Shown here: in pieces, positions 24,129-32,261 of the stretch | Layout: every line of letters begins with the position of its first letter | Position numbering within the stretch: the first letter of the stretch is position 1 | Assembly: GCF_902779965.1 (NCBI RefSeq) | Contig: NZ_CACZDK010000020.1 | Location: forward strand, 1-53,768 | DNA: 53,768 nucleotides | Direction of reading: 5' to 3' | DNA from: Fibrobacter succinogenes | Lineage (GTDB): Bacteria; Fibrobacterota; Fibrobacteria; Fibrobacterales; Fibrobacteraceae | Program-made: the position numbers and the translations under genes | Notes under the pieces: generated by a model | Databases searched by the model: none | Told to the model about the DNA's origin: nothing | Seen by the model: the letters and a program-made list of their open reading frames with translations, nothing else

Positions 24129-24234
24129 GAAGATTCCCACATTACATCGGCTATGCTGCACGGGTCGCGGGAATGATAACGCTAAGTTTCGCTCTAGCTA
24201 AATGCTGGGGCGATTTTTTTATAATTTTCTGACT

Positions 24235-25428
24235 ATGAATAATTTTCGCTCCATCGATGAACTCATTCAGGCTCTTTCTCGCGAGAAGGCTTTGCTAAAA
24301 GAAATGTTTGCGAAGCGAAAAACGCTCTCATTTCGCATGGATCTGGCGGAGCCACTTGTCGATTACAAAATGTCGCGTATTCAGTATTTGGTGGATTATG
24401 GCATCATTCGTGACAACGGAAATTTTTTGGAACTTGAAGATGTTTATCTCAAGTTCTTCGAAGAGGTTCTTGAAGTCAACGAAGAAATCAATGTCGAAAG
24501 CGTCAAGGCGAATATTGACCATCTGAACGAAACTATCGAATATTACTTGCAAGAAACGAATGAATCGCAAAAGTACAATTACTTGCGCGAAGTGCGTCGA
24601 AGCTTGAAAAACATTGCACTCAATACAAAGCGTAACGTCATAGACTTGAAGCGTAATGTCGATAACACTTACAAGAACGAACCAAATTACAAAATCAAAA
24701 AGGCGAAACTCAAGCATTTCGATGAAAAACGCGACGGTATCAAGTTGCAGATAATTGAAGCGGAAAAAGTGATAGACAATCAGGCTGCATTTTTTAAAAT
24801 TGCGATGGATGCGGATTTGCGAATTGTGGTTGATGATTTGCGGTATGACTTGAACGAGTCTTCGCACAACTTAATAGAAATCGAAAAGCAGATTATCGAA
24901 TATCTGAACTTGATTGATTACCAAAGCGAACTATTGAAAAAGATTCGCTTGGTGAAATATTTCCGCGACCAGCAAGTGCTCGAAACGAATACTGATGTTA
25001 CGAACGTTCTGGCGAGTCGAAACCCTGTTTGGATGGAACCGAATGTGGGCTACAGAATCAAGGTATCGCTCGATTGGCTGAGAGGAAGCGACGACGGACT
25101 CTCTGTATTGCGTGAAGTGCGTGGCCGAAAGCAGAACTGCAACAACCTTCGAAAAAAATTGGCAGACCCGCTTGACGAAAGTGAAATTGCCGCACAGAAT
25201 ATCGTCATCCCGATGGTCGATCAGACCGAGATGAAAAACGGATTCATGGCGACGAGTACGGATTTGTTTTACTATGTCATGAATTACAGTTATCCCTACG
25301 AAATTGATTTGGAAGGAAAACTGGTGCTCTTTTGTCAGCTTGCATCGCAGTTCTCGGACGAATTTGAAATTACGGACAAGTACGAAGAAGCGTATGGGTA
25401 CGAATATCCGCTGATATATCCGAAGTGA
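24235..25428 (+). CDS. jetA: JetA-like (kleisin/MukF-type) subunit of a Wadjet system
   Basis: About 397 residues from the ATG at 24235. The frame is open from 24202, but TATAAT at 24220-24225 places transcription start near 24232, so the later ATG is preferred. An N-terminal winged helix (KTLSFRMDLAEPLVDYKMSRIQYLVDYGIIRD, given here as a region around residues 25-60) is followed by long coiled-coil helices and a C-terminal mixed domain. I assign it by position and architecture: a MukF-like gene heading a set whose later genes are clear JetB, JetC and JetD homologues. In Wadjet, JetA bridges the SMC heads. The operon is split after this gene by 1.7 kb of other sequence. No similarity could be computed, so confidence is moderate. 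Confidence 0.68.
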   Translation: MNNFRSIDELIQALSREKALLKEMFAKRKTLSFRMDLAEPLVDYKMSRIQYLVDYGIIRDNGNFLELEDVYLKFFEEVLEVNEEINVESVKANIDHLNETIEYYLQETNESQKYNYLREVRRSLKNIALNTKRNVIDLKRNVDNTYKNEPNYKIKKAKLKHFDEKRDGIKLQIIEAEKVIDNQAAFFKIAMDADLRIVVDDLRYDLNESSHNLIEIEKQIIEYLNLIDYQSELLKKIRLVKYFRDQQVLETNTDVTNVLASRNPVWMEPNVGYRIKVSLDWLRGSDDGLSVLREVRGRKQNCNNLRKKLADPLDESEIAAQNIVIPMVDQTEMKNGFMATSTDLFYYVMNYSYPYEIDLEGKLVLFCQLASQFSDEFEITDKYEEAYGYEYPLIYPK

Positions 25429-25786
25429 GTGCAAAATTTGCACCTCAAGTTGGGGCGGCAAAGATACGCTCCCTACACGTTTACCGAGCAAGGCATTTAT
25501 ATGCTTATGTACATTCTCAAGGGCAATTTGGCTGTGCGTCAGAACATCGCTCTAATATGTTTGTTCAAGAAAATGAAGGATTACATTGCCTCGGAAAATC
25601 AACAAATGCTTGGAAACACTGGCCTAGTGGAAAATTCCTTACAGATGGCGCAGAATGCTGTGCGAAAATGCGAAAAATGTGAGTGTGCGGACTTTCAGCG
25701 AGGAATTGAACGGCGAGGTTACTCCGGCGATATACCACCCGATAGTGGAGGAATTGAAGAAAGTGTCGGCAGTGGGTAAATTTTAA
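25429..25786 (+). pseudogene. Truncated and frameshifted ORF6N/KilA-N-like gene
   Basis: Starts directly at the jetA stop without an ATG. The first frame encodes RYAPYTFTEQGIYMLMYIL and LICLFKKMKDYIA, the end of the ORF6N (Bro-N/KilA-N-like) DNA-binding domain; its N-terminal half is missing. The sense then passes to the +1 frame, which continues VRTFSEELNGEVTPAIYHPI and ends at TAA 25784-25786. The loss of the 5' half plus the frameshift mark it as a remnant. A second fragment of the same C-terminal part lies beyond the DUF1016 gene (26972-27046). Confidence 0.7.
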
Positions 25787-25800
25787 GAGCAAATTTTGAA

Positions 25801-25821
25801 AAATGTCATAATATGACATTT
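25801..25821. promoter_or_regulatory. Palindrome AAATGTCATA-A-TATGACATTT
   Basis: A perfect 10-bp inverted repeat with a 1-nt centre, 70 nt upstream of the DUF1016 gene. A second hairpin (CCCGCA...TGCGGG, about 25856-25882) lies just before that gene's ribosome-binding site. Operator role inferred. Confidence 0.5.
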
Positions 25822-25892
25822 GAAGAATGTATATTTGCTAAGCAGAAGAAAAGACCCGCAATTTCAAGCTTGTTTGCGGGCTGGAGTGAAAA

Positions 25893-26930
25893 ATGAAGAA
25901 AAAGACAGGAAAAGAAATAGAGATTCCCCAAAACCAGAGCAATGGGTACAAGAATCTTGTAACGCAAATAGGTTCATTGCTGATTGAAAGCCGTAAACAG
26001 GTGTTTCAAGCAGTGAACTCCACTCTCGTAAATACCTATTGGCAAATCGGTCGTCATATTGTAGAATATGAACAAGGCGGCAACGCGAAGGCCCAATATG
26101 GGGCAGAACTGTTGGATAACCTCGCTAAGGACTTGACCGCGCAATTTGGAAAAGGGTTCAGTCGTTCGAACTTGATCTATATGCGTAAACTTTTTACGGC
26201 ATTTCCAATTCGTGAGACGCTGTCTCACAAATTGAGTTGGAGTCATTATTTTGAAATTTTAAAAGCTGATTCTGATCTCGAAATAGGTTTTTATACAAGA
26301 CAATGCGAAAACGAGAACTGGAGCGTCAGGGAACTCAAGCGTCAGATGAAAAGTCTGCTGTTCCATAGGATTGCCTTGAGCAAGGACAAAAAAGGTGTGC
26401 TGGAAATAAGCAAGCAAGGAGTCCAAACGCAAAAGCCTGAAGATATCGTAAAGGACCCTTATATTCTGGAATTTCTTGGTGTAAACGAAGAACAGAAATA
26501 CCTTGAAGGAGATATCGAGGAAAAGGTTGTCGCCAACTTGCAAACATTCTTGTTGGAGTTCGGCAAAGGCTTCGCTTTTATCGGACGGCAGTACAAGATG
26601 CAAATTGGCGCCAGGCTGTTCAAAGTAGATTTGGTGTTCTACAATTACAATCTCAAGTGCTTTGTTCTTATTGATTTAAAACGAGGCGAAATCGAGCATT
26701 ACGATGTGGGGCAAATGAATATGTACTTGAATTTCTTCAAAAAAGAGGTTTGCGCCCAGGACGACAATCCGCCTATCGGAATCGTACTCGGAGCCTACAA
26801 GGACCAGTTGTTGATGGAATACGCGATGCAGGGCATAGAAAACAATTTGTTTGTAAGCAAGTACCAACTTTATCTCCCCAAACGCGAGGAATTGCAGGGC
26901 GAACTTGAAAAAATTCTTGCGGAGAAATGA
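25893..26930 (+). CDS. DUF1016 (YhcG-type) PD-(D/E)XK nuclease
   Basis: 345 residues. An N-terminal DUF1016 helical domain (VNTYWQIGRHIVEYEQGG, GFSRSNLIYMRKLFTAFP, LSWSHYFEIL) is followed by a C-terminal PD-(D/E)XK fold with KVDLVFYN and CFVLIDLKRGE carrying the D...DxK active-site residues. Length matches the family (~340-370). YhcG-type proteins are common in defence islands; their molecular function is poorly known. Ribosome-binding site GGAG before the ATG. It is inserted between jetA and jetB and flanked by two pieces of an ORF6N-like gene that share the CCGGCGAT..TACC..CCGATAGT sequence. Confidence 0.88.
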   Translation: MKKKTGKEIEIPQNQSNGYKNLVTQIGSLLIESRKQVFQAVNSTLVNTYWQIGRHIVEYEQGGNAKAQYGAELLDNLAKDLTAQFGKGFSRSNLIYMRKLFTAFPIRETLSHKLSWSHYFEILKADSDLEIGFYTRQCENENWSVRELKRQMKSLLFHRIALSKDKKGVLEISKQGVQTQKPEDIVKDPYILEFLGVNEEQKYLEGDIEEKVVANLQTFLLEFGKGFAFIGRQYKMQIGARLFKVDLVFYNYNLKCFVLIDLKRGEIEHYDVGQMNMYLNFFKKEVCAQDDNPPIGIVLGAYKDQLLMEYAMQGIENNLFVSKYQLYLPKREELQGELEKILAEK

Positions 26931-26971
26931 CATACGGTTTTCGTGGCCAACGATGTTTTTCTTTGCAAATC

Positions 26972-27046
26972 GAATGTCCGGCGATGTACCCTCCGATAGT
27001 AGAGGTGCTATGCACAGGATTATCGCATCAAAAAATGACGCAATAA
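26972..27046 (+). pseudogene. Second fragment of the ORF6N-like C-terminus
   Basis: Encodes PAMYPPIVEVL and then about a dozen residues to a TAA at 27044-27046, closely matching TPAIYHPIVEEL at 25718-25753. The shared DNA (CCGGCGATgTACCcTCCGATAGTaGAGG against CCGGCGATaTACCaCCCGATAGTgGAGG; lower case marks differences) forms imperfect direct repeats on either side of the DUF1016 gene. Confidence 0.65.
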
Positions 27047-27098
27047 ATGGATGCGATAAACTCTTAAAAATAACATGAGCTTTTTTACAAGAAATACT

Positions 27099-27128
27099 TT
27101 GCGTATTATTGAATGTTTCGGGTAAAAT
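27099..27128 (+). promoter_or_regulatory. Candidate promoter of jetB-jetC-jetD
   Basis: TTGCGT (27099-27104), 18-nt spacer, TAAAAT (27123-27128), ~37 nt upstream of the jetB ATG at 27166. It would allow jetBCD expression independent of the interrupted upstream part. Confidence 0.5.
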
Positions 27129-27165
27129 TACTCTGCGTACTGCTGAACTTTTATATTTTTCTTTT

Positions 27166-27717
27166 ATGCTGAAATACTCCAAGGAAATTTTTGACATTTT
27201 GAGCAAGGGCTCGTTCATTTCGATGAACAGCGTTTCGCAGGCGAACCGTGCATATTTCGACCAGATTGAAGATGATTTTGAAAGCTACCGTGAATATTAC
27301 GAAGGTATCGGCTTTGTGCTGGAGAGTGGTAACGGGTATTTTTACTTTTCGCGGCATGAGCAGAGGGTGAATGCGGTTGACAAGCTCTTGCGTTTTTGTG
27401 ACTGGATTGACCGTCTGGATTTTTTGAAAACTTTCAATTCTGCGTTCGGCTCAGGATTCGTTTTTACCAAGGCGAAAATTCTGGAACGGATTTCATGCGA
27501 CATGGAACTGAAGGATAAAGCGGTCAAGCTTTATGCCGACAAGAAAGTTTTTGCTGATGTAATCGACAGGTTGACCGATGATTTGATGAAAGCGGGTTTT
27601 GTGGAATTGGAAAACGACTTGGAAGGATTGTACAAAGTGACATCTGCATTCCATTATCTCGACGAATTGGTGAATTGTTTGAATATTGTGGAGGGAGCGG
27701 AAAATGAGATCCCTTAA
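27166..27717 (+). CDS. jetB: JetB-like (MukE/kite-type) Wadjet subunit
   Basis: About 183 residues from the ATG at 27166 (MLKYSKEIFDILSKGSFI); the frame is open from 27109 but that part overlaps the -10 box. It is made of tandem winged helices (DILSKGSFISM..., VFADVIDRLTDDLMKAGFVE, YKVTSAFHYLDELVNCLNIV), matching the DUF4194/MukE-type accessory proteins of SMC-like complexes. It overlaps jetC by 14 nt, so translation is coupled. Works with JetA and JetC as the loop-extruding complex that recognises circular plasmid DNA. Confidence 0.8.
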   Translation: MLKYSKEIFDILSKGSFISMNSVSQANRAYFDQIEDDFESYREYYEGIGFVLESGNGYFYFSRHEQRVNAVDKLLRFCDWIDRLDFLKTFNSAFGSGFVFTKAKILERISCDMELKDKAVKLYADKKVFADVIDRLTDDLMKAGFVELENDLEGLYKVTSAFHYLDELVNCLNIVEGAENEIP

Positions 27718-30700
27718 CAAGATTGTCTTTATCAACAGTGCTCATGTGCGTTATGCGGAAATTGGCCTGAACGGTAATGTTCATTTGATTGGTACGCAGG
27801 GCGTGGGCAAGAGTACTCTTTTGCGTGCAATTCTCTTTTTCTACAATGCGGACAAGCAAAAGCTTGGAATCCCAAAAGAGAAAAAGTCTTTTGACGATTT
27901 TTATTTTGAACAGTCAAATTCTTATGTTGTCTATGAAGTGGAACGCGATGAGTCGGCATTCTGCGTGTTGGTAAGCAAATCGAATGGTCGTGCGGTATTC
28001 CGTTTTATCGATTCGCCGTACAAAAAGGAATGGCTGATTGACGATAATGGCGAAGTGACTGCTGAAATGGCGACTGTTCGCACTCGGTTGAACGGTTGCT
28101 ATATGAGCCCGATTGTCGATCGCTACGAAATGTTTCGCGACATTATTTACGGCAACCATCAGGCGGTGATGCGGAAGGAATTTTTCAAGTTTTCGATTGC
28201 GGAAAGTAGCCGCTACCAGAACATTCCGCGAAGCATTCAGAATGTTTTCCTCAACTCTAAACTCGATGCAGATTTTATCAAGGAAACAATAATTCAATCG
28301 ATGGATAGCGAAAGTTCGTTTATCGACTTGGGATATTTCAGGCATCAAGTTTCGGAGTTCGAGCAGGAATATAGCGATATCGGGCTTTGGTTCACGACGA
28401 ATAAGCGAGGAGAATGCGAGACGCGGTTTGATGCCGACCGCGTTGTTAAAATTTATCATTCGCTTTTGGGACTCAAAAAGAATATCGAGGATTGTGGCAA
28501 GCAACTGAATTATTCTTATCGCGTGGCTAAAGAGCAACTCCCGTCGATTGCGATTGAAATTGAAAAATCGAATGAAGCTTTGAATGAAACGATTCGTCTT
28601 ATAAGCGAAGAAAGTGGCAAGTTCCACAAGGAACGCGACGGCTTGAATGCGGACTTGACGCTTGTTAAGGATAATTTGAAAAAGTGTCGCGATAAATTCC
28701 AGGAATACCAAGCAAAGAATATTGATGAGATTCTGAAAAAACAGGAACGCGAAGGCTCCTTGAAAATCGAGAAAGAACGATTGGAAGAACGTCGCCGCCT
28801 CCTGACTCGTGAATATGAAGATGTCGCCGAAAAGTTTGAGAATTTGCTGAAACAAGTTTCGCGGGCTTTGGAAGAATTTAAGCAAAATCAGAACATTCGC
28901 CTGAACGATAAAAATGCGGAGTTGTTGGAACAACGGCAGCGGGTGCTCGAAAAATTTGAACAAATGCGAGAAACGATTGTTGCTCGGTTTGATGAAAAAC
29001 TGGTAAGCGTAAAAAATACAATTAATGCCTTGAATGCAGATCGTGTCGCTTGCGAAAAGGAGCTGCTAAGGCTTCTGTATGAACATCCGTTTAAAGATAA
29101 AATTAATGAATGCGATGAACAACTGAAATCATTGAATGCTCACGAATGTGAAATAAAAGTGCTGAAGTCTGCATGCCAAGCGGAGTTGAACAAACTTTCT
29201 GCTCAACGAGATGCCGAGCTGGAACGCAATCGCGTTGAATACGAAAAAGAGAATGATGCCTTGGTTGCGGAAAATCGAGGCTTTGCCGCTCAGCTCAAAA
29301 GCCTTGACGATTTGCTGGAACGGCAAAAGGGTTCGCTTTATGAATGGCTTAGCCAGAATAAACCGGGTTGGGAAAATTCTATTGGCAAGGTAGTCGATGA
29401 GGAATCGGTTCTGTACAATACGGATCTTTCTCCGGAACTTGTAGATGGAGACGCTCTTTTCGGCGTGAAAATCAATCTTGAAGATTTGCCGATTCGTGTG
29501 CGAACGCCCGAAGAAATTGCGACCGAGAAAAAATCAATTTTGAAGTCCGTTGAAGACAACAAGTCAAAACAGACGGAATTGTCGGATGCTCTTGAAAAGA
29601 ATAATTCGGCGGTAGAACGCTCGTATGCCCCTAAGATTAAGCCGCTTTTGGAAAATATCAGAAACGCCGAAAATGAACTCGTGCAGATTCCGATAAAGCG
29701 TAAGCGTTTGGAAAATGAACGCGAAAAATGGAATCGCGATGATGCTGCGAAAATTGAAAAACGTAAGAATGAAATTCAGTCGCAACAGAATGTCATCTCT
29801 GAAAAACTGTTGAATGCCGAGGAACAGCAGAATAAAATTATCGCAGATAAAAATCGCGAACTGAAAGCAAACGAAAAAGCGAAACAGCAAGAAAATGAAT
29901 CTCTTCAAAATGCGTTTAATGATTTCCGCGTGCAGATTCTTGCAGAAATTGAAACACGCAAGAACGAAGCGGAAAACGAACGTAAATTGTTGTTGCAGCA
30001 GCGTGACGAAGAGCTGAAAAATAAGAATGTCGATGTCAGCGTTTTGAAGGAATGCGAAGCGGAAATTGATAATGTACAGCAACAGCTAAACGAAATAGAA
30101 CGGAATCGCGATTTGGTCGCTCGTTATCGATACGACAAGCAGGAATTCTTCGACCATGATGACGAATTCAAAAATGAAAAACGCGATTTAGAAAGTCGTT
30201 TGAACGATTTGCAACAAAAGTTCAATGCTCGCAAGGAACGCCTTGAAGCGAAGCGTGCGGAGCAAAATGAAATTTTGCAGCAGAACCGCGAAACGGATCG
30301 CAAGTTGAAGGAGTCCGTTGAAGAAACGGATAAATTCTCCGTTTCAAGTTTCTGCCCAGAAAATATAAAGAGCGTTGGCGAAACACCGAATGCCCGGCTC
30401 TGTACTGAAATTTTGACTGAACTCAAGGAATCGTTGATGAACGCTCAAAAGCGAAGCAAGGAACTTGAGATGTCTATTAACAAGTTCAAGGGGCGTTTTT
30501 CCAGACGCAACACGTTCAAGTTCAAGATGGAATTGAATAGCGAAAGCGATTTCATGGATTTTGCGGACAATTTGAGCGACTTTTTGTTGAACGAAAAGAT
30601 TGAGGAATATCGCAAACGTACGAGCGGTCGATATTCCGACATTTTGGCTCGCGTTGCAAAAGAAGTTGGCGATGTTACGCGTCAAAAATCTGAAATCGAG

Positions 30701-31360
30701 AAAATTGTTTTGAATATTAATCGCGATTTTGTCGAAAAGAATTTTGCAGGCGTAATCAAGAGTATCGCTTTGCGTACCGAAGAATCGAATGACAAGCTGA
30801 TGCGTTTGATGCTTGCGATGCAGAGATTCTATGCAGAAAATCAGTATGCGTTGGGTGAATTGAACTTGTTCTCAATGGGCGATACGGAAAGTGCGAATCG
30901 CGGAGCGGTTGATTTGCTTTTGCAATTTGTGAAGTCACTAAATGACGAACCGACGCGTAATACATTAAAACTTTCGGATGCATTCCGCTTGCAGTTCCGC
31001 GTACAAGAAAACGATAACGATACTGGATGGATTGACAAAATTTCTAATGTGGGTTCCGAAGGTACGGATGTACTCGTGAAAGCAATGGTGAACATCATGC
31101 TCATCAATGTTTTCAAGACGCAGGCTTCACGCAAGTTCGGCGAATTTAAACTCCACTGCATGATGGACGAAATCGGAAAACTCCACCCGAAGAATGCAAA
31201 TGGCATTTTGAAATTTGCGAATAGTCGAAACATTTATTTGGTGAATGGCTCACCTACAACGCAGAGTGTGTCGGAATATCGCTACACGTATTTGCTCGAA
31301 AAGAATGCAAAATCGCAAACCGTGGTAAGGCCGTTAATGACAAGAGCTCTAGGAGTGTAA
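27704..31360 (+). CDS. jetC: JetC-like SMC/MukB-type ATPase of Wadjet
   Basis: About 1218 residues from the ATG at 27704 behind GAGGGAG (an in-frame upstream ATG at 27686 is less likely). N-terminal P-loop GTQGVGKST (~30-38) with a preceding HLI strand; residues ~270-950 are two long coiled-coil arms (glutamine-, lysine- and glutamate-rich heptads) around a hinge region near ~550-590; the C-terminal head has an ABC-signature-like VGSEGTDVLVKAM and a Walker B-like LHCMMDEIGKL. Known biology: JetABC extrudes DNA loops and, with JetD, cleaves closed circular plasmids. All head motifs look intact. Codon use is more core-like than in the helicase operon at 7.7-12.7 kb. Confidence 0.9.
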   Translation: MRSLNKIVFINSAHVRYAEIGLNGNVHLIGTQGVGKSTLLRAILFFYNADKQKLGIPKEKKSFDDFYFEQSNSYVVYEVERDESAFCVLVSKSNGRAVFRFIDSPYKKEWLIDDNGEVTAEMATVRTRLNGCYMSPIVDRYEMFRDIIYGNHQAVMRKEFFKFSIAESSRYQNIPRSIQNVFLNSKLDADFIKETIIQSMDSESSFIDLGYFRHQVSEFEQEYSDIGLWFTTNKRGECETRFDADRVVKIYHSLLGLKKNIEDCGKQLNYSYRVAKEQLPSIAIEIEKSNEALNETIRLISEESGKFHKERDGLNADLTLVKDNLKKCRDKFQEYQAKNIDEILKKQEREGSLKIEKERLEERRRLLTREYEDVAEKFENLLKQVSRALEEFKQNQNIRLNDKNAELLEQRQRVLEKFEQMRETIVARFDEKLVSVKNTINALNADRVACEKELLRLLYEHPFKDKINECDEQLKSLNAHECEIKVLKSACQAELNKLSAQRDAELERNRVEYEKENDALVAENRGFAAQLKSLDDLLERQKGSLYEWLSQNKPGWENSIGKVVDEESVLYNTDLSPELVDGDALFGVKINLEDLPIRVRTPEEIATEKKSILKSVEDNKSKQTELSDALEKNNSAVERSYAPKIKPLLENIRNAENELVQIPIKRKRLENEREKWNRDDAAKIEKRKNEIQSQQNVISEKLLNAEEQQNKIIADKNRELKANEKAKQQENESLQNAFNDFRVQILAEIETRKNEAENERKLLLQQRDEELKNKNVDVSVLKECEAEIDNVQQQLNEIERNRDLVARYRYDKQEFFDHDDEFKNEKRDLESRLNDLQQKFNARKERLEAKRAEQNEILQQNRETDRKLKESVEETDKFSVSSFCPENIKSVGETPNARLCTEILTELKESLMNAQKRSKELEMSINKFKGRFSRRNTFKFKMELNSESDFMDFADNLSDFLLNEKIEEYRKRTSGRYSDILARVAKEVGDVTRQKSEIEKIVLNINRDFVEKNFAGVIKSIALRTEESNDKLMRLMLAMQRFYAENQYALGELNLFSMGDTESANRGAVDLLLQFVKSLNDEPTRNTLKLSDAFRLQFRVQENDNDTGWIDKISNVGSEGTDVLVKAMVNIMLINVFKTQASRKFGEFKLHCMMDEIGKLHPKNANGILKFANSRNIYLVNGSPTTQSVSEYRYTYLLEKNAKSQTVVRPLMTRALGV

Positions 31361-31361
31361 T

Positions 31362-32261
31362 TTGGCGTACAATATTACAACAGCGTTATTGAATAAATTG
31401 ATAGTTCTTGCCAACGGAGATGAACTCCCCGCAAGCGACTGTAAAGGAGTTATTTTTGCCGAATTGCTAAAGGAAGGTTTGCTGATTTCATTCCCAAAAG
31501 GACGAGGTTCTTTTTGCAAAGCTCCAAATGGAAATGCCTTACGAGCTTATCTAGCCATTCGAGATGATGCGTTCAAAGATTTAGAAAAAAGCGAAGAGAT
31601 GTATCGTAGGCTTTCTTGGGCGGAAAGTAGCATCAGACCGTTGGCCATGCGAAAGGAACAAGCTGTATCAACAGGTAATTCAAAAATTCGAACTGCCCGT
31701 AGTTGCAAGGGGTTCTTGGTAAACTGCTATGAACCGATACCAGTGAGTCTCAATGGAAAACATTTTGATTTGAATCCGCCTGATGGATCCTTTGTTTTTA
31801 TCGCTGATTACGAAAATTTCTTTGTCCCAGAAAATGTGATAGTTGTGGGCATAGAGAATATGGAAAATTTCCGCTATATTGAACGGCAGAAAACATTGTT
31901 CAAACAAATTGTTCCCTTTGTTAAGCCGCAACCATTACTATTTGTAGCTCGCTATCCGCAGTCCGGTGATTTGATTCGTTGGCTCTGTGGCAACGACAAT
32001 TATTATATGCATTTTGGCGATTTAGACCTTGCTGGCATCAATATCTATCTTACCGAGTTTTATGCCAAACTTGAGGAGCGTTCCGCTTTCTTTGTTCCAA
32101 ATGATGCTGAAAAACGCATTGAAAACGGCAGCCGCGAACGCTACGACAACCAGATTCTGAAATTCGAGAATATGAAAGTGACCGATTCGAGAGTTCAACC
32201 GCTTGTGAATCTAATCAAGAAACATCACAAGTGTTACGACCAAGAAGGATATATCGAGTAG
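31362..32261 (+). CDS. jetD: JetD-like Toprim nuclease of Wadjet
   Basis: 299 residues. TTG start with AGGAG 6 nt upstream, one nucleotide after the jetC stop. The C-terminal half is a Toprim domain: acidic VVGIENMENF supplies the first glutamate, and MHFGDLDLAGINIY the DxD pair, as in topoisomerase VI A and JetD. The N-terminal part (about 1-120) should be the winged-helix arm. JetD is the nuclease that cuts plasmid DNA held by JetABC. It is somewhat short against the ~380-400 residues of many JetD proteins, so the N-terminal domain may be reduced. Convergent with the next gene, 11 nt apart. Confidence 0.85.
   Translation: MAYNITTALLNKLIVLANGDELPASDCKGVIFAELLKEGLLISFPKGRGSFCKAPNGNALRAYLAIRDDAFKDLEKSEEMYRRLSWAESSIRPLAMRKEQAVSTGNSKIRTARSCKGFLVNCYEPIPVSLNGKHFDLNPPDGSFVFIADYENFFVPENVIVVGIENMENFRYIERQKTLFKQIVPFVKPQPLLFVARYPQSGDLIRWLCGNDNYYMHFGDLDLAGINIYLTEFYAKLEERSAFFVPNDAEKRIENGSRERYDNQILKFENMKVTDSRVQPLVNLIKKHHKCYDQEGYIE

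What the first reader, a model, noticed from the sequence alone, without database searches (positions are those of the whole stretch)
24235..32261. Wadjet operon split by a DUF1016 nuclease
jetA is followed not by jetB but by 1.7 kb holding an ORF6N remnant and a complete DUF1016/YhcG-type nuclease gene, then jetBCD behind its own promoter-like sequence. Wadjet genes are normally contiguous. Either a second defence gene was nested inside the operon, or the nuclease has become part of a composite system.
Basis: partly seen in the sequence, partly recalled or inferred. Interest (0 to 1): 0.7.

Follow-up and report, generated by a model that had tools for sequence, protein, structure and literature searches.

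The report
Accessory nuclease nested in split Wadjet-like operon
In some rumen Fibrobacter bacteria the four genes of a plasmid-destroying (Wadjet/MksBEFG-like) machine are interrupted, between the first and second gene, by a mobile DUF1016 nuclease gene sitting in the wreck of an earlier guest gene; the machine's genes look intact and still under selection, so this is an accessory gene parked in a working operon rather than proof of a new composite weapon.

Summary
Window 24235-32261 encodes a divergent MksFEBG/Wadjet-like operon: kleisin JetA, KITE JetB (MksE), SMC JetC, TOPRIM JetD. 1,737 bp separate jetA from jetB. They hold the remains of an ORF6N gene, an intact DUF1016/YhcG nuclease gene with its own leader, and a second ORF6N tail. 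In 14 homologous operons outside this lineage, including F. intestinalis (JetA and JetB 90% identical), the gap is 60 bp or less. All four carriers in 80 Fibrobacter species genomes have the insert. In one (G071) the slot holds a complete ORF6N gene instead. The slot is therefore lineage-specific and its guest has turned over. dN/dS of 0.02-0.05 for all four jet genes between two split lineages indicates that the split operon is maintained. Jet plus insert is 97-100% identical across two species whose upstream flank differs by 5-22%, so it travels as a unit. DUF1016 genes are common in the genus (69 of 80 genomes, up to 8 copies), and the same leader and hairpin precede unrelated guests elsewhere. 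A nested, independently expressed accessory gene is the best reading; a composite system is not supported but not excluded. Jet activity and transcription are untested.

The parts
24235..25428 (+). jetA / mksF, kleisin subunit, 397 aa
   Evidence: Homologues at 25-91% identity immediately upstream of jetB in 14 other operons; AlphaFold model (pLDDT 71, pTM 0.45) with best Foldseek hits MukF 9gm7_C (E 2.7e-3), JetA 8q72_E (1.3e-2) and MukF 3rpu_A. No Pfam or PADLOC JetA model matches.
25429..25779 (+). ORF6N gene remnant: middle of the gene joined directly to the jetA stop, internally deleted, with the gene's 3' tail (about 25690-25785)
   Evidence: Pfam ORF6N positions 64-85 only; PADLOC PDC-S05 2.3e-20; similar to complete ORF6N genes in L049, L060, L062.
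25804..25818 (+). perfect palindrome TGTCATAATATGACA of the guest leader, followed by a -10-like TATATTTG at 25830
   Evidence: Same palindrome in 43 of 80 Fibrobacter genomes, 0 for the reversed control; it precedes ORF6N, DUF1016 and RhuM genes, among others.
25851..25880 (+). leader hairpin CCCGCAA-N12-TTGCGGG directly before the Shine-Dalgarno sequence and start codon of yhcG
   Evidence: Same 30-mer in 17 of 61 Fibrobacter genomes, 0-3 copies each, before unrelated genes; folds as one hairpin.
25893..26930 (+). DUF1016/YhcG-type PD-(D/E)XK nuclease gene, 345 aa, intact
   Evidence: DUF1016_N 1e-45 and YhcG_C 1e-55, PDC-S02 1e-132; VDLVFY...LIDLK motif read in the sequence; 90% identical stand-alone copies at another locus in G029 and G081.
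26964..27010 (+). second ORF6N 3'-tail fragment
   Evidence: 80-88% identical to ORF6N 3' ends in L049, L060, L061 and L062; 86% identical over 29 bp to the left tail.
27016..27065 (+). 10-bp inverted repeat between yhcG and jetB, no U-tract
   Evidence: Folding z-score -4.9; not called as a terminator.
27091..27165 (+). block before jetB shared with G071, possible jetBCD promoter region (TATATT at 27152-27157, TATAAT in G071)
   Evidence: 8 of 75 differences against 27 of 56 at jetB fourfold sites, though only 4 of 17 in the nearest 60 codons; absent from the 10-bp gap of F. intestinalis.
27166..27717 (+). jetB / mksE, KITE subunit, 183 aa
   Evidence: Pfam MksE 8.4e-38; start set by the F. 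intestinalis homologue.
27704..31360 (+). jetC / mksB, SMC ATPase, 1218 aa
   Evidence: DUF3584 3e-65, PADLOC JetC1 1.7e-6; Walker A GTQGVGKST and Walker B-like MMDEIGKL read in the sequence.
31362..32261 (+). jetD / mksG, TOPRIM-type nuclease subunit, 299 aa
   Evidence: All 9 homologues match PADLOC JetD1 models (best 4.9e-7); E165, D220 and D222 invariant.

Best explanation
The locus is a divergent MksFEBG/Wadjet-like plasmid-defence operon whose jetA-jetB junction became a landing slot for solitary accessory genes in one Fibrobacter lineage. First (inferred), an insertion opened the junction and brought the block now in front of jetB; the slot held an ORF6N gene, as it still does in G071. 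Later the ORF6N occupant was broken and a DUF1016/YhcG nuclease gene with its own operator-like palindrome, promoter-like sequence, hairpin and ribosome site took its place. Shown: the empty site, the two different guests, the intact reading frames, purifying selection on all four jet genes between two split lineages, and near-identity of jet plus insert across species with diverged flanks (transfer as one block). Inferred: jetBCD is transcribed by read-through and/or from the conserved block before jetB; JetABC extrudes loops on small circular DNA and JetD cuts it, as in characterised Wadjet systems; the DUF1016 protein acts independently as a single-gene candidate defence nuclease.
For: Domain and motif assignments; kleisin fold for JetA; exact empty site in F. 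intestinalis with a 10-bp gap; gap of 60 bp or less in 14 loci outside the lineage; insert in 4 of 4 jet-bearing genomes among 80 Fibrobacter species genomes; complete ORF6N guest in G071 at the same chromosomal site; dN/dS 0.02-0.05 for jetA-D between window and G071; jet plus insert 97-100% identical to L012 over most of its length while the upstream flank is 78-95%; DUF1016 in 69 of 80 Fibrobacter genomes, up to 8 copies; yhcG present or absent between hairpin copies at another locus in G029 and G004.
Against: yhcG is kept intact and nearly identical in all three genomes that have it here, which would also fit a selected partnership, but these copies are too young to tell. The jet operon and its guest move together. 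JetA matches no sequence model, and JetD only weakly. No transcript or activity data exist. The palindrome is also found before genes of other kinds.
Confidence: 0.8

Rival explanations
1. Composite system: the DUF1016 nuclease has been recruited as an additional effector or modulator of the jet complex and is co-selected with it.
For: Same strand, within the operon, intact, 99.7-100% identical at protein level in three genomes, transferred together with jet.
Against: None of 14 other jet operons has it, including F. intestinalis; G071 has ORF6N in its place; yhcG has its own leader; 90% identical stand-alone copies exist without jet; few changes separate the three copies, so selection on them cannot be measured.
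Confidence: 0.08
2. Degenerating operon: the insertion disconnected jetBCD from its promoter and the system is decaying.
For: The native Shine-Dalgarno sequence and first two codons of jetB in F. intestinalis (AAGGATGGTT) are missing at the junction; jetD starts with TTG.
Against: All four frames open in four genomes; dN/dS 0.02-0.05 between two lineages that both have the split; catalytic motifs intact.
Confidence: 0.07
3. Housekeeping condensin rather than defence: the operon is an MksBEF chromosome-organising complex.
For: The KITE matches MksE, and several relatives (L015, L105, L111, L112, L115) have no jetD detected next to jetABC.
Against: The window operon has jetD with its acidic residues; it is present in few Fibrobacter species (4 of 80), as expected for an accessory system.
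Confidence: 0.05

Closest known systems
MksBEFG / Wadjet (JetABCD), e.g. Corynebacterium glutamicum mksFEBG and E. coli type I Wadjet
   Same: Same gene order A-B-C-D (F-E-B-G), kleisin-like, KITE, SMC and TOPRIM subunits (PMC10123090, PMC10586767).
   Different: Sequence lies outside PADLOC JetA and JetB models; 1.7 kb with another gene between jetA and jetB; JetD is short (299 aa against 387-409 positions in the matched JetD1 models).
Contiguous homologous operon of Fibrobacter intestinalis ATCC 43854 (L013) and Bacteroidota relatives
   Same: Homologous jetABC(D); 73-91% identity in F. intestinalis, 25-57% in Bacteroidota for JetA.
   Different: No insert; jetA-jetB gap 60 bp or less.
DUF1016/YhcG nucleases (PADLOC candidate PDC-S02)
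   Same: Both Pfam domains complete and above cut-off, PD-(D/E)XK motif.
   Different: Stand-alone in the closest other Fibrobacter copies looked at; here inside a jet operon.
ORF6N-domain genes (PADLOC candidate PDC-S05)
   Same: A complete ORF6N gene with palindrome leader occupies the same slot in G071.
   Different: In the window only fragments remain.

Membership tests
MksBEFG / Wadjet | MukB-like SMC ATPase (JetC/MksB) | tested here: met
   DUF3584 3e-65; Walker motifs in the sequence.
MksBEFG / Wadjet | KITE subunit (JetB/MksE) | tested here: met
   Pfam MksE 8.4e-38.
MksBEFG / Wadjet | Kleisin subunit (JetA/MksF) | tested here: met
   Synteny in 14 loci and Foldseek top hits MukF and JetA, best E 2.7e-3 with a moderate model. 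Sequence models did not match, so support is structural and positional.
MksBEFG / Wadjet | TOPRIM nuclease subunit (JetD/MksG) | tested here: met
   9 of 9 homologues match JetD1 models, best 4.9e-7; window protein alone 0.003; E165, D220, D222 invariant. Fold model was uninformative.
MksBEFG / Wadjet | Uninterrupted gene order A-B-C-D (usual, not defining) | tested here: not met
   Order and strand kept, but 1,737 bp between A and B.
MksBEFG / Wadjet | Restriction of small circular DNA | not testable with these tools
   Needs experiment.
DUF1016/YhcG nuclease (PDC-S02) | DUF1016_N plus YhcG_C PD-(D/E)XK domain, complete | tested here: met
   155 and 188 bits against cut-offs of about 33.
DUF1016/YhcG nuclease (PDC-S02) | Anti-phage or DNA-cutting activity | not testable with these tools
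   PADLOC lists it only as a candidate.
Composite Wadjet system with DUF1016 | Recurrent association of DUF1016 with jet operons in independent lineages | tested here: not met
   0 of 14 operons outside this lineage have any gene between jetA and jetB; different guest in G071.

The most novel reading that the evidence does not exclude
DUF1016, ORF6N and RhuM genes of Fibrobacter are hairpin-bounded, selfishly moving nuclease-type gene cassettes (single genes gained and lost at a shared leader hairpin) that colonise expressed sites, and the jetA-jetB junction of a Wadjet-like operon is one such site.
Probability: 0.15. Interest if true: 0.65.

Novelty: new variant of a known kind. Interest (0 to 1): 0.4.

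Why it matters
It is a documented case, with empty site, two different guests and selection data, of a defence operon carrying a replaceable accessory gene between subunit genes. It warns that tools requiring contiguous jet genes, or relying on current JetA and JetB models, will miss such operons. It also points to a shared leader that marks a set of nuclease-type accessory genes across Fibrobacter.

Tried and rejected
JetA against Pfam, PADLOC and PDB sequences: nothing usable. JetD structure: pLDDT 60, Foldseek gave mostly winged-helix matches over short stretches. JetA and JetB relatives in IMG/VR: none; leader hairpin in IMG/VR: none. Bacteroidota sample: JetB homologue in only 2 of 395 genomes including the centre, so the survey of gaps rests on few loci. 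Promoter and terminator scans did not exceed shuffles. A single leader hairpin is no more stable than shuffles, so its case rests on recurrence, not on energy. Integron-type cassette arrays were considered: I recognised no attC-like core site by eye, and no recombinase was looked for systematically. The DNA next to the ATPase gene in jet-less genomes was variable and gave no clean empty site for the whole operon. No paper in the library holds both Wadjet and DUF1016.

Full report
Observation. The window lies in a Fibrobacter genome (G000, 4.09 Mb in 76 contigs; the nearest named relatives are Fibrobacter). On the + strand, between a P-type ATPase gene and an MMPL gene, lie jetA (24235-25428), an ORF6N remnant (from 25429), a complete DUF1016/YhcG gene (25893-26930), jetB (27166-27717), jetC (27704-31360) and jetD (31362-32261). 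I corrected the jetB start from 27109 to 27166 and found a second ORF6N 3' tail after the nuclease gene.

Is it a Wadjet-type operon? JetB matches Pfam MksE at 8e-38 and JetC matches DUF3584 at 3e-65. JetD alone is weak, but all nine homologues match PADLOC JetD1 models (best 4.9e-7), and E165, D220 and D222 are invariant. C. glutamicum MksG needs an acidic pair (E236, D279) for cutting (PMC10123090); the equivalence is my inference. JetA matches no sequence model. It is nevertheless the gene directly upstream of jetB in 14 other operons, and its model (pLDDT 71, pTM 0.45) finds MukF and JetA first in the PDB (9gm7_C E 2.7e-3, 8q72_E E 1.3e-2). VIA-align ranks unrelated helical bundles as high on the central part, so the fold evidence is supportive, not conclusive.

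Is the split real and unusual? F. intestinalis ATCC 43854 has the homologous operon (JetA and JetB 90% identical) with 10 bp between jetA and jetB. In 14 operons outside the lineage (F. intestinalis and Bacteroidota, chromosomal and plasmid-borne) the gap is 60 bp or less (distances read from those coordinates). The insert is therefore specific to one lineage and its content differs.

History (inferred from these comparisons). The 75 bp before jetB are shared by window and G071 (67 of 75 identical) and absent in F. intestinalis, so the opened junction probably predates their divergence. The ORF6N remnant of the window is only 67% identical to the G071 ORF6N gene and up to 75% to ORF6N genes elsewhere, so the slot probably held more than one ORF6N gene. 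The yhcG unit (leader, hairpin, gene) lies between ORF6N fragments. Copies of this unit, 90% identical, stand at another locus in G029 and G081 without jet. At that locus yhcG of G029 is flanked by a full and a partial copy of the leader hairpin, and G004 has the same flanks with one hairpin and no yhcG. This shows gain or loss of single genes at the hairpin, although plain recombination between repeats would do.

Does the split operon still work? dN/dS for jetA, jetB, jetC and jetD between window and G071, both split, is 0.02-0.05 (synonymous distances for jetB-D are near saturation, so the ratios are rough, but they are far below 1). All frames are open. Jet plus insert is 97-100% identical to L012 over nearly all of 24151-31650 (one 250-base block at 94%), while the upstream ATPase is 78-95% identical, so the split operon has moved between species as a block. 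The native ribosome site of jetB was lost. The conserved block before jetB contains TATATT (TATAAT in G071) 8 bp before the start codon, which would give a leaderless message; this is a suggestion only, since the promoter scan shows no excess, and nearby synonymous divergence is also lowish.

Mechanism. Shown: anatomy, empty site, two guests, selection, block transfer. Inferred: JetABC loads on circular DNA, extrudes it and triggers JetD cutting, as reviewed for Wadjet (PMC10586767); YhcG is made from its own leader and acts separately. Nothing found links YhcG to the jet complex.

Novelty and verdict. The operon is a divergent member of the MksBEFG/Wadjet kind, with an unusual replaceable guest gene inside. 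No paper in the library contains both Wadjet and DUF1016; the library is not complete. I score it as a new variant of a known kind, of moderate interest. The more novel idea is that DUF1016, ORF6N and RhuM genes form a set of mobile single-gene cassettes with a common leader; searches support the common leader, but mobility by a dedicated mechanism is not shown.

Noticed in passing
window 25804-25892; also L019, L020, L024, L038, L051, L150, L153, L154, L161, L165: A common leader (palindrome TGTCATAATATGACA, TATATTTG, hairpin, Shine-Dalgarno, ATG) precedes DUF1016, ORF6N and RhuM genes across Fibrobacter. The hairpin has two sequence subtypes (CCCGCAA/TTGCGGG and CCGCC/GGCGG) with a GCTTGT-like loop. 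A shared regulator or RNA element is likely.
   Followed up: partly
L054, L055, L056, L057, L064 (hairpin positions): The same hairpin also occurs with a different promoter (TTGACA..TATATT, GTGCACAAG) before a RhuM-like gene, AbiEi-like genes and an ATPase gene (named by eye), sometimes twice within 2-3 kb.
   Followed up: partly
L047 10053-11166 against L053 about 10300 (reverse): Filled and empty versions of a yhcG site: two hairpin copies with yhcG between them in G029, one copy and no gene in G004, right flank 94% identical.
   Followed up: partly
L015, L105, L111, L112, L115: Bacteroidota operons with jetABC but no jetD detected next to them, beside relatives that do have jetD: possible switches between plasmid-defence and condensin-only forms.
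   Followed up: no
window 24235-25428 against 27166-32261, compared with G071: Synonymous divergence from G071 is about 0.43 for the ATPase and jetA but above 1 for jetB-D, so the two halves of the operon may have different histories, with the slot as the boundary.
   Followed up: partly
window 27016-27065: Strong 10-bp inverted repeat between yhcG and jetB (z -4.9) without a U-tract; role unknown.
   Followed up: no
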